Below, one piece after another: positions 40,385 through 43,383 of a stretch of 64,000 nucleotides of DNA. The stretch is from NCBI RefSeq assembly GCF_001676705.1, contig NZ_CP016170.1, positions 434,001 through 498,000 of the forward strand. Direction: 5' to 3'. Numbering within the stretch: the stretch's first letter is position 1; every line of letters starts with the position of its first letter. This DNA is from Bordetella bronchialis. GTDB taxonomy: Bacteria > Pseudomonadota > Gammaproteobacteria > Burkholderiales > Burkholderiaceae_B. Below the pieces are notes generated by a model. That model was not told the DNA's origin and did no database searches. It saw only the letters and a program-made list of their open reading frames with translations. Made by a program: the position numbers and the translations under genes.

Positions 40385-41419
40385 GGAGCGCGGAATCGTG
40401 TTCCTTGCGAAGCGGTGCGAAAACAGGCGCTAGTTAGAGTGAGATAAACGCGTTGAAAAAAAAACGTTGGCTTAGTGTAAAAAATTCGCTAATCCTGATC
40501 TGTGAACCTGTACCGTACGGAAATGGTGGCGAGCTTCCTAGCAAAAGCTGTAGCCGGCAGCGACAATCGCTTAGCTGGCAGGAGCGGTAGCCAGCAGCTT
40601 TCACTACGATGAGCAGCTTACTGATATTTATCTAGCCACGAGACTGTGACCAGCAACCGTAGAGGCATTGAGAATGTAGCGCCAGGCCCGGGGCCATCAG
40701 GTGGATGGCAAGCCACTCGGCCTTCGACGGACCGGGGGAACGTTGATGCCCAGTTTCTTGCTCCGGCCAATCTCTGACGGCCTAGACATTTTTGGCAATC
40801 AGCTTGTGGTGCCAGGCGACCCTGAACCGATCACTTCTGGGCGCTTGAAAAAGTACCGGGTGAAAATAAATGATCGCGCTCGCACTTGCCTGGTCATGGC
40901 GTGCAGCAGCTCCGGCGAGACTTCAATGGCCCTCGAGCGTGGCAACGGCGGCGACTAATGTTACATCTACCAATACTATTCTTTGTTTGATCGGGCTGCC
41001 GACGGGCCGGTATGCTCGCGCTTGTTCGTGAACACTTCCCCGCTTTCCTTGGCGGCCTGCTCTAACACACGATGTTCCCTTATTCTCAGCGGCCCCATAG
41101 ACCTTTTGGCGTGCCCGTAGGCGAAAGGACGGTTTTGCGGCCGGAATATCGCTCACCCTCCCGAGAAAGGATTGTCGAGATTCTCCGGACGCCTTCTCGA
41201 TCTTGCGCGGAGGCGCGTACTGGTCAACATCGAGGGGTCGTAGGCGCCCAACGGCTGCTTGCTCACTACCAAGCCGTGGTCATGCATCCCCGCACGGATT
41301 CCCTGTACTAGCGTATCAAAGCCAGCACGTGACGATCAACAGCCTTCTTTGTGACCCGTTATGGAAATTTCCCGTAAAACTTGGTAAAAATCCTCCACGC
41401 CAATAGTCGGGTGAAAACA
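40385..41419. other. Gene-poor decayed stretch
   Basis: About 1 kb with low GC for the window and no convincing gene. The longest plausible frame, 40746-40958 (+), could encode MPSFLLRPISDGLDIFGN and about 50 more residues; it matches nothing I recognise and lacks a convincing upstream context. Probably eroded remains of former genes. Confidence 0.5.
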
Positions 41420-41820
41420 ATGCGCTCCTGGTTTCGAGGTAAGTCTGCAGTTCCAGCTATTGATAGCGGCCCAGGCTTGCTCACACTAATCATTGCGGTT
41501 GCAGTGCCGCTGCTCGTCCTGGCGCTCCTGTTATTTCGGCATCGGCTTGGGTTCAACCAAGGCTTTTCCGCTTGGGGACAACTCGGCGACTATTTCGGCG
41601 GCCTCGTGAATCCCCTTTTGGGAATCCTCTCAGTCTATCTATTGATACGAACCTTTAACCTGCAGACTGACATCACTAAAAGCACAGCACGGCAGGGGGA
41701 AATTCAATCTATTGAGCAGACTGTGTTTGCTTGGTTCAGAGACTATAAGGATCTGATAGGCGACATGCCGTACCTTACCGTCAGCGCCCCTAATAGCGGT
41801 GCCATTACAGGGCGACTAGG
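41420..41820 (+). pseudogene. Abortive-infection (putAbiC-like) gene, 5' part cut by IS481
   Basis: Encodes an N-terminal fragment with two transmembrane segments (LLTLIIAVAVPLLVLALLLF and, after FSAWGQLGDYFGGL, VNPLLGILSVYLLIRTFNL), followed by a cytoplasmic part that includes IEQTVFAWFRDYKDLIG. The W-G-x-x-G-D-Y-F-G-G-x-x-N-P pattern is typical of the family called putative phage abortive infection protein (putAbiC). The open frame then runs into the IS481 copy at 41821. GTG 41411 is an alternative start. Removing the IS and one copy of the CTAG target rejoins it in frame with 42865-43383. Confidence 0.75.
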
Positions 41821-42766
41821 TGTGAACTGTCAAGAGGTTGTATCCGCCCAGATTAAGCCTGGAGATAGGTACAGCGCGGCCGATGCCTTGGTGAGGGCGA
41901 TGCCAGTTGTAGTGGTGTAGCCAGGATTTCATGGCATCGGCTCGGTGTTGTGAGTTTTGGTAGGTGTAGGCGTAGGCCCATTCACGCAGGGCTGACTGGA
42001 TGAATCGTTCGGCCTTGCCATTGGTCTGTGGCCGGTAGGGCCGGGTGAAGCAATGCTTGATGCCCATTTCACGGCATAGCGCGGCGAAGGCGCGGCTGCG
42101 GAAGGCCGAGCCATTATCGGTAAGCAACCGCTGGATGGTCACGCCTAAGCGCTTGTAGTAAGCCACGGCGTCCTTGAGGAACTGGACCGCACTGGGGGCG
42201 CGTTCGTCGGGGTGGATGTCGGTAAAGGCCACGCGAGCGTGGTCATCGATGGCCACGAAGACGAAGTCCCAGCCGGCACCGTCCACGCCATCGCGCCGGT
42301 TACCTGTAACGCGGTGGCTGGGCCGCACGATGCGCCCGAGCTTCTTGATGTCGATGTGTAGCAATTGGCCTGGCGCCTCATGTTCGTAGCGCACCACCGG
42401 CTCGGCCGGCTCCAGGTCGGCCAGGCGGGACAGACCGGCACGGGCCAGGACGCGGCTGACGGTACTGGCCGATACGCCCAGCGCCTGGGCAATGCGTGCC
42501 TGAGTCAGTCGCTTGCGGCGAAGTTCGACGATAGCCATTGCCTTGGCCGGCGCAATCGCCTTGGGCGAGCGCACCGGGCGCGATGAGGCATCTGCAAGCC
42601 CGTCCTGGCCCTGCGCCAGAAACCGACCTAGCCATTTGCGCACAGTCGGCGCCGTCACCCCGTAGGCGCCAGCCGCTTGAGAGATCGTCAACTGTTTATT
42701 GCGCAATTGCTCAACCATTTCGAATCGACGTACGAAGGTCAATCGGGCATGCTTATGGGTGTTCAT
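41816..42766 (-). CDS. IS481 family transposase
   Basis: 316-residue DDE transposase: N-terminal helix-turn-helix domains (LTISQAAGAYGVTAPTVRKWLGRF; RIAQALGVSASTVSRVLARAG), then the rve integrase core with Asp in LLHIDIKKL and VFVAIDDHARVAF, Asp in LLTDNGSAF, and Glu in NGKAERFIQSALREW. Very similar to the Bordetella pertussis IS481 transposase as I remember it. The reading frame runs to the last IS base; the TAG stop (complement of 41816-41818) is supplied by the flanking CTAG target. Confidence 0.93.
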   Translation of the reverse strand: MNTHKHARLTFVRRFEMVEQLRNKQLTISQAAGAYGVTAPTVRKWLGRFLAQGQDGLADASSRPVRSPKAIAPAKAMAIVELRRKRLTQARIAQALGVSASTVSRVLARAGLSRLADLEPAEPVVRYEHEAPGQLLHIDIKKLGRIVRPSHRVTGNRRDGVDGAGWDFVFVAIDDHARVAFTDIHPDERAPSAVQFLKDAVAYYKRLGVTIQRLLTDNGSAFRSRAFAALCREMGIKHCFTRPYRPQTNGKAERFIQSALREWAYAYTYQNSQHRADAMKSWLHHYNWHRPHQGIGRAVPISRLNLGGYNLLTVHT

Positions 42767-42863
42767 CCGGCCGGGCTCCTTGAGCTTTCTGGTGGTTTGG
42801 CGATTACCAGTTTCTCAAACCCGGTTCGGGTGAACCATGAATACAACCTATTGAATGTTCACA
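41821..42863 (-). mobile_element. IS481 family insertion sequence, left copy
   Basis: 1043 bp between inverted ends TGTGAACTGTCAAGAGG (left) and the complement of TGTGAACATTCAATAGG (right), which match over ~25 bases with four mismatches. It contains one transposase gene on the minus strand. It is flanked by ACTAG on both sides (41815-41819 and 42864-42868), the CTAG-centred target duplication expected of IS481. It appears identical in sequence to the right copy, in opposite orientation. It interrupts a putAbiC-like gene. Confidence 0.93.
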
Positions 42864-42864
42864 A

Positions 42865-43383
42865 CTAGCCCTCCGAAACCTTGTCCGCGATATCCTGCGA
42901 GAAGATAGATACACCGTTCAGGACGATGTGGCGGTACTCGGCCGAATGACCGCTTTGGCAACTGATCCCGACATTACTGCGCCGTCGGAGTGGAATAGCT
43001 TACAGGCCCGTTGGGACGACATCTATAAGTCGCACGGTGACTGGCTGGGCGGGTGCCTTCGTACCCTTTACGGGTTGATTCGGTGGATAGACGAACACCC
43101 GGTTCTAAATGACGACGAGAAGCGCAGATACGTCAGCATCATCCGTGCTCAGTTATCGGATGCGGAACTACGCGTGCTGTTTATCAATGGCATGACGGCG
43201 ACAGGAGCGAAGTTCGTCAAATACGTGAACCGTTATGCGCTACTGGACAACATGCGCCCCGAAGAGATTCCTCTCGTAGAGGTCCTCAGAAGATGGTCAG
43301 ACAGTCCCTATACCGCGTGCGCGTACTCGACCGACGAGGCCGACAAGGTAGAATGGACTACTCCTGTCAAGCAGCAACCCTAA
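42865..43383 (+). pseudogene. Abortive-infection (putAbiC-like) gene, 3' part
   Basis: Continues the gene broken at 41820. After CTAG the codons read LALRNLVRDILRED, then RYTVQDDVAVLGRM, with no stop until 43383, in the frame of the 5' part once the IS and one CTAG copy are removed. The C-terminal domain has GGCLRTLYGLIRWIDEHPVL and RYVSIIRAQLSDAELRVLF, the pattern of putAbiC C-termini. A GTG at 42928 could in theory start a 151-residue fragment, but without the membrane anchor. The restored protein would be about 306 residues. Confidence 0.75.

What the first reader, a model, noticed from the sequence alone, without database searches (positions are those of the whole stretch)
41411..43383. 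Abortive-infection gene split by IS481, with the reading frame exactly restorable
The 5' part (41420-41820) and 3' part (42865-43383) lie on either side of an IS481 copy. Deleting the IS and one of the two CTAG target copies joins CGA-CTA-G to CC-CTC-CGA and keeps one frame to the stop at 43383, giving a two-helix membrane anchor plus cytoplasmic domain of about 306 residues with the putAbiC pattern. So a phage-defence gene was whole until the IS landed. The CTAG duplication is still perfect, so the insertion is probably recent, and precise loss could restore the gene.
Basis: partly seen in the sequence, partly recalled or inferred. Interest (0 to 1): 0.72.

Follow-up and report, generated by a model that had tools for sequence, protein, structure and literature searches.

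The report
Insertion sequence splits a phage-defence gene
A mobile DNA element of a common type has landed inside a probable phage-defence gene of a Bordetella-like bacterium and cut it into a membrane-anchor half and a C-terminal half; this is an ordinary way for such genes to be lost.

Summary
A 1,043-bp IS481-family element (41821-42863) separates two open halves of one gene. The 3' half passes the Pfam cut-off for putAbiC (61.3 bits against 22). The 5' half has no Pfam match, but both halves match one phage-protein family, phrog_8999, at ordered, non-overlapping positions. Both also match, in order, 12 of 12 uninterrupted putAbiC genes found in 268 genomes of the same taxonomic family. I searched the halves apart and made no joined sequence. 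CTAG on both sides dates nothing: 240 of 314 cross-pairs of ends from different copies also show it. The six-base duplication is imperfect, five of six. The element is IS481-like, 87% identical to the best copies found, not IS481 itself. No empty site was found: the nearest relative found has no PF16872 match and nothing of this island in 9.7 kb beside the same tRNA gene. The intact protein is probably a membrane-anchored abortive-infection protein of a family also found on prophage contigs. Defence is inferred, not shown. The case is ordinary.

The parts
41420..41818 (+). 5' half of the split gene: membrane anchor (hydrophobic stretches at residues 9-46 and 57-81) and start of a helical stalk; 133 codons
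   Evidence: open frame; phrog_8999 positions 17-101, E 9.7e-14; hydropathy; no Pfam, PADLOC or NCBIfam match
41815..41820 (+). left flanking six bases ACTAGG (target duplication, left copy)
41821..42863 (-). IS481-family element, copy 1, 1,043 bp, ends TGTGAAC/GTTCACA
   Evidence: 87% identical over the full length to copies in two other genomes
41816..42766 (-). transposase ORF of the element, 316 aa
   Evidence: LZ_Tnp_IS481, rve and rve_3 above their cut-offs
42864..42869 (+). right flanking six bases ACTAGC (target duplication, right copy; five of six agree with the left)
42868..43383 (+). 3' half of the split gene: rest of the linker and the C-terminal putAbiC domain, 171 codons plus stop
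   Evidence: PF16872 61.3 bits against cut-off 22, E 1.3e-16 (piece 42871-43380); phrog_8999 positions 161-245, E 3.4e-10
44566..46942 (-). neighbouring restriction-modification genes: Eco29kI-type endonuclease (44566-45240), C5 cytosine methyltransferase (45237-46460), Vsr (46457-46942)
47416..48458 (+). second copy of the same element, inverted, identical over 1,043 bp
48729..50327 (+). GmrSD_N protein with weak C-terminal HNH matches
   Evidence: PF03235 45.3 bits against 33.2; HNH models below their cut-offs
51098..51182 (-). tRNA-Leu (CAA) at or near the right edge of the low-G+C island
   Evidence: similarity to G107 and G108 starts at 51098 and 51095, but to G003 already at 50484

Best explanation
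One putAbiC-family gene in a defence island near a tRNA-Leu was inactivated by insertion of an IS481-family element at an NCTAGN target. Shown by sequence: the element, the two open halves, their order, and their homology to one family. Inferred: the intact protein sits in the inner membrane by two N-terminal helices, continues as a long helical stalk, and carries a helical C-terminal domain. During phage infection it would stop phage growth by abortive infection, perhaps with membrane damage as reported for the membrane-anchored PdpSau. The element falls in the predicted flexible linker. The 5' half now ends with 33 residues read almost wholly from the element, and the C-terminal domain is cut from its anchor, so full function is most likely lost. 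The confidence given is for one gene split and inactivated; for a defence role alone I would say about 0.7.
For: The 3' half passes the PF16872 cut-off, 61.3 against 22 bits. Both halves match phrog_8999 at 17-101 and 161-245 of 270. PF16872 was found in 12 of 268 genomes, each in one open frame. In these, the 5' half matches 12 of 12 and the 3' half 11 of 12 by tblastn (missed in L084) and 12 of 12 by blastp on the read frames, always in order on one strand. The plasmid record NZ_CP044066.1 has both matches in order under an annotated putative phage abortive infection protein. The stretch between the aligned parts differs from the window's by six residues or fewer in 8 of 12; in the other four the window is 10 to 28 residues longer (arithmetic), so nothing appears lost. 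The 23 relatives aligned are 245-384 aa against 304 codons here. The transposase carries IS481-family domains. An AlphaFold2 model of the intact relative P0011 (mean pLDDT 71.6) shows helices 17-44 and 53-132, a stretch under pLDDT 50 at 137-172, and helices between 172 and 298. Relatives lie on 49 viral contigs; two were looked at and lie beside terminase and portal genes.
Against: No uninterrupted copy from the same species or island was found. The six-base duplication is imperfect. The PADLOC matches, to AbiC and AbiP, are weak, about 20 bits. No solved structure is clearly related: the best E-value was 0.61, to a coiled coil. The 14 control genomes of the PF16872 search held no match, so they neither support nor weaken it. 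The defence role rests on family names and company, not on any assay. In the joint alignment the tail of the 5' piece was not reliably placed.
Confidence: 0.9

Rival explanations
1. The flanks come from different insertion events: recombination between element copies brought together two fragments of different genes.
For: The flanking six bases agree in only five positions. Such mismatches are common in one sampled genome: 12 of 14 copies in G090, though 3 of 12 in G089. A second identical inverted copy lies about 4.5 kb away.
Against: Both halves match the same family in order and with the expected spacing, and they share a frame. After an inversion between the two copies the 3' half would lie beside copy 2, not copy 1. 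Copy 2 has matching CCTAGG on both sides if the T before TGTGAAC is counted with the element.
Confidence: 0.04
2. The split gene still works in part: the C-terminal putAbiC domain is made on its own, from an internal start and an outward promoter of the element, as a protein freed from its anchor.
For: The element's transposase-start end abuts the 3' half, so outward transcription from there would read it in the sense direction. IS481 has an outward promoter near its left end (passages of PMC3053399). A 151-aa ORF from GTG 42928 and a predicted 145-aa protein P0001 hold the whole domain. The insertion falls in the linker (placed by eye).
Against: The promoter scan of 41000-43600 found 2 sites, none of them outward at the junction, against 1.3 expected from shuffles. 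All 12 intact relatives have an N-terminal match. Outward promoters were reported for IS481, and this element is 13% different.
Confidence: 0.06
3. The intact gene is not a defence gene; 'putative phage abortive infection' is only a label.
For: PADLOC matches are weak; 0 papers of the library held putAbiC or PF16872; I found no assay of this family.
Against: It lies among restriction genes and relatives lie on viral contigs, the usual company of defence genes.
Confidence: 0.25

Closest known systems
putAbiC family, Pfam PF16872 (and PHROG 8999)
   Same: C-terminal domain over the curated cut-off; N-terminal hydrophobic pair; both halves match phrog_8999
   Different: cut in two by an insertion element
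Lactococcal AbiC and AbiP (PADLOC models PDLC02343 and PDLC02351)
   Same: weak local match of the same domain, E 8.9e-5 and 1.6e-4; AbiP is described as having transmembrane and DNA-binding domains (passages of PMC10127798)
   Different: only about 20 bits over part of the models; no nucleic-acid binding tested
PdpSau, Staphylococcus aureus prophage protein (PMC10127798)
   Same: N-terminal membrane anchor, cytoplasmic C-terminal part, prophage company; reported to halt phage DNA replication and change membrane permeability (abstract and passages)
   Different: one anchor helix and an OB-fold-like, positively charged C-terminal part are reported there; the model of relative P0011 is nearly all helical and the window's 3' half has 22 K+R against 27 D+E; no sequence or fold comparison with PdpSau was made
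IS481 of Bordetella pertussis
   Same: 1,043 bp, IS481-family transposase, CTAG targets; ends begin TGTGAA and finish GTTCACA in the copies of G089 and G090 that I take for IS481
   Different: 87% DNA identity to the best copies in G089 and G090

Membership tests
putAbiC, PF16872 | domain score above the curated cut-off | tested here: met
   61.3 bits against 22 for the 3' half alone
putAbiC, PF16872 | N-terminal membrane anchor seen in intact relatives | tested here: met
   hydropathy peaks 9-46 and 57-81 in the 5' half, similar in the three relatives examined, P0011, P0002 and P0008
putAbiC, PF16872 | one uninterrupted reading frame | tested here: not met
   split by the element; 12 of 12 genes found in 268 genomes have no stop inside
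abortive-infection system | protects a population from phage by stopping infected cells | not testable with these tools
   needs an assay
Lactococcal AbiC/AbiP | strong full-length model match | tested here: inconclusive
   about 20 bits over part of each model; no cut-off is given for PADLOC here
PdpSau-type protein | positively charged C-terminal part | tested here: not met
   22 K+R against 27 D+E in the 3' half
PdpSau-type protein | OB-fold-like C-terminal region | tested here: inconclusive
   the C-terminal part of the model of relative P0011 is helical; the window's own half was not modelled and no fold comparison ran
IS481 family | IS481-type transposase with leucine-zipper and integrase-core domains | tested here: met
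   PF13011 73.8, PF00665 61.5, PF13683 65.4 bits, all over cut-off
IS481 family | six-base duplication of an NCTAGN target | tested here: inconclusive
   ACTAGG and ACTAGC, five of six; 11 of 26 sampled copies in two genomes have six of six
IS481 itself | near identity to the type element (about 95% or more by naming custom, recalled) | tested here: not met
   87% to the best copies in 268 genomes searched, of which at most two candidate places per genome were scored

The most novel reading that the evidence does not exclude
The element entered at the flexible linker and turned a one-piece membrane-bound defence protein into two modules: an anchored stalk with an element-coded tail, and a free C-terminal domain transcribed by the element. 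If made, the free domain could act in the cytoplasm or be controlled by the element.
Probability: 0.05. Interest if true: 0.5.

Novelty: new member of a known kind. Interest (0 to 1): 0.22.

Why it matters
Loss of a gene through an insertion element is a known kind of event (general knowledge; PMC5045587, passages, names a Bordetella example). The case is clean, since both halves can be recognised on their own. It also gives a useful caution: CTAG on both sides of an IS481-type element says little about the age or unity of an insertion. The gene family, a membrane anchor with a helical domain that also occurs on viral contigs, seems untested as far as two searches of one open library by its names can show.

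Tried and rejected
Searching each half in the large protein database gave only the window's own 145-aa fragment for the 3' half (1 of 64 candidates) and nothing for the 5' half (0 of 140 candidates); an intact relative as query gave 13 proteins. Plasmid records gave weak relatives: 1 record for the 5' half and 4 for the 3' half, with Cupriavidus pauculus NZ_CP044066.1 in both. Phage records: 3 partial matches with P0011. I looked for repeats of the tRNA end in 36500-52500; none of the repeats of 18 bases or more involves it. A composite transposon (copy 1 to copy 2 moving as one unit) was rejected, because the 3' half of the gene lies inside it and the outer flanks differ (ACTAGG, CCTAGG). The left edge of the island could not be placed: window 32890-37450 has only scattered 65-92% matches in four relatives. 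Fold comparison was not possible. Rfam was not used.

Full report
What is there. At 41420 an ATG opens a frame that runs 133 codons to 41818. At 41821 an IS481-family element begins; it ends at 42863 (1,043 bp). From 42868 the + strand is open for 171 codons to the stop ending at 43383. The element lies in reverse: its transposase ORF is 41816-42766 on the minus strand and carries the IS481 leucine-zipper and integrase-core domains above their cut-offs. Its ends are TGTGAAC and GTTCACA. It is 87% identical over its whole length to copies in G089 and G090, and 82% and 79% identical to copies in G103 and G118, of 268 genomes searched with at most two candidate places scored in each, so it is a relative of IS481 rather than IS481 itself. 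A pattern that meets both ends of the element has 237 forward and 237 reverse hits in G090, and 51 and 50 in G089, so about 237 and 51 copies. These fit the 238 copies stated for B. pertussis Tohama (PMC3053399, passages) and the 51 stated for B. holmesii (PMC5045587, passages); the naming of the two handles is my inference.

One gene or two. The 3' half alone scores 61.3 bits against the PF16872 cut-off of 22 (E 1.3e-16). The 5' half has no match in Pfam, PADLOC or NCBIfam. In PHROGs both halves match phrog_8999, a family of 270 positions with no known function: the 5' half at 17-101 (E 9.7e-14) and the 3' half at 161-245 (E 3.4e-10). In the taxonomic family around Bordetella sp. LUAb4, 12 of 268 genomes carry PF16872, each in one open frame of 276-347 codons without inner stops. 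The 14 control genomes had none. The 5' half matches 12 of 12 (E 2.7e-8 or better, for this small set) and the 3' half 11 of 12 by tblastn, missing L084. By blastp on the read frames the 3' half matches 12 of 12, weakest 9.5e-5, and the 5' half 12 of 12, weakest 0.009 in L085, whose frame I had started at a late methionine. The order and strand are right in all 12. From the coordinates, the stretch between the aligned parts differs from the window's by six residues or fewer in 8 of 12; in the other four the window is 10, 13, 20 and 28 residues longer, and in none is the relative longer by more than four. So no segment seems to be missing. By eye, in the alignment, 14 of 23 relatives have G-x-x-A-(L/I) at this point; the 5' piece ends in G-R-L and the 3' piece begins A-L-R. 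The program itself did not place the tail of the 5' piece well there, so this is only a remark. The 12 genes are not independent: L089, L090 and L091 are close. For the 23 rows, L085 was left out and L082, equal to P0010, was dropped. No joined sequence was used.

The target duplication. IS481 is reported to duplicate six bases, NCTAGN (PMC3053399, passages; it cites Stibitz 1998, which I did not read). Here the six bases are ACTAGG on the left and ACTAGC on the right, five of six. As a control I took the copies whose loci were given, the first places of each genome and not a random draw: 26 distinct complete copies, 12 in G089 and 14 in G090. Repeated copies were merged, L133 was incomplete, and the loci of G103 and G118 (L097, L098, L117, L118, L121, L124) gave no complete copy by my pattern and were left out. 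CTAG lies beside 46 of 52 ends. Pairing the left end of one copy with the right end of another of the same genome gives CTAG on both sides in 240 of 314 pairs, and six equal bases in 29 of 314. Six of six agree in 9 of 12 copies of G089 and 2 of 14 of G090. The second copy in the window, 47416-48458, is inverted and identical over 1,043 bases. Its flanks are CCTAGG on both sides if the T before TGTGAAC is counted with the element. Identity of the two copies fits recent spread, but gene conversion or assembly of repeats could also produce it.

Where it lies. The stretch 38001-51000 has 57.7% G+C against 67.3% before 37000 and 67.1% after the tRNA (profile). It holds an Eco29kI-type restriction endonuclease, a C5 methyltransferase and Vsr (44566-46942), a GmrSD_N protein (48729-50327), the two elements and the split gene. 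A tRNA-Leu lies at 51098-51182. In G107, the nearest relative found (91% in htpG DNA), and in G108, similarity begins at the tRNA (51098 and 51095) and continues into htpG, and nothing of the island appears before it in the 9.7 kb compared. In a third relative, G003, similarity begins earlier, at 50484, so the right edge is not settled to the base. G107 is not among the 12 genomes with PF16872. I read this as a variable defence island near a tRNA gene; no empty site for the split gene could be read from relatives. No attachment repeat was found, and no integrase was sought beyond the ORFs scanned. The window's own genome is not held. The 3' fragment is predicted as a 145-aa protein in a cluster of 3 sequences on 2 contigs, the longest 5,878,756 bases, so the broken form may exist in more than one record; I could not see the second. 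The size would fit B. bronchialis or B. flabilis (genomes of one study run from 4,490,371 to 5,966,919 bp; PMC5064114, whole text), but this is a guess. If it were from that study, its gaps were closed by hand from short reads, which would weaken any argument from the exact bases at element junctions.

How the intact protein may work. The 5' half has two hydrophobic stretches, 9-46 and 57-81; the 3' half has none. AlphaFold2 on the intact relative P0011 with 13 sequences gave mean pLDDT 71.6 and pTM 0.54: helix 17-44, a long helix 53-132, a stretch under pLDDT 50 at 137-172, then helices from 172 to 298. The element's place corresponds by eye to about residue 155 of P0011 (its G-R-N-A-L-R starts at 153), inside that low-confidence stretch, so each half codes for a whole module. 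No solved structure is clearly related by sequence (best E 0.61). Relatives were confirmed on 49 viral contigs. Two were looked at, L148 and L151: in both the gene stands on the strand opposite to neighbouring terminase and portal genes, like a cargo gene. The L148 protein is identical to that of L083 in genome G069. The best-studied protein of like build that I found is PdpSau of S. aureus prophages, which halts phage DNA replication and changes membrane permeability (PMC10127798, abstract and passages). Its authors compare it with AbiP; PADLOC's AbiP and AbiC models match the window's 3' half weakly (19.8 and 20.1 bits). But the positive charge reported for PdpSau is not seen here, and the model of P0011 shows helices where an OB-like fold is reported there. 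My best guess is abortive infection through a membrane-bound helical protein; the trigger and the deed are unknown.

What the break does. The 5' frame now ends after 33 further residues, 166 aa in all from ATG 41420, giving anchor and stalk start without the domain. The domain could be made only from an internal start such as GTG 42928. IS481 has an outward promoter near its left end (PMC3053399, passages) and the orientation here would read the 3' half in sense, but the simple scan saw no such promoter at the junction. Loss of function is by far the likelier result.

Verdict. Observation right, gene family right, dating argument wrong, activity and reversibility untested. Ordinary in kind. 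Searches by the names putAbiC and PF16872 returned 0 papers, and the phrase putative phage abortive infection with transmembrane also 0; this speaks only for the open library searched.

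Noticed in passing
47416-48458: Second identical, inverted copy of the element; with copy 1 it brackets the Eco29kI-type restriction-modification genes, so recombination between the copies could invert that segment. Minus-strand ORFs run up to both its sides (pieces 48462-48707 and 47237-47413; no Pfam match), so it may interrupt another gene.
   Followed up: partly
47415 and 42864: The distance from CTAG to the left end of the element differs by one base between the two copies (an extra T beside copy 2), so the true end of this element is unsettled.
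   Followed up: partly
L083 and L148; L086 and L161: Intact putAbiC relatives in genomes of the same taxonomic family lie on contigs also held as viral: L083 and L148 encode the identical protein, and L086 and L161 lie on contigs of equal length, 47,151.
   Followed up: partly
L095, L096, L115-L144: In the sample, intact six-base duplications were rare in G090 (2 of 14) and common in G089 (9 of 12), which would fit more recombination between copies in G090.
   Followed up: no
48729-50327: GmrSD_N protein with weak C-terminal HNH matches and a weak PADLOC match to NsnA (24.4 bits); perhaps a further defence gene.
   Followed up: no
L188, L189: Two viral-contig relatives have much longer frames (464-471 codons stop to stop) with what looks like an internal repeat between stalk and C-terminal domain: the linker region seems to tolerate large additions in the family.
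   Followed up: no
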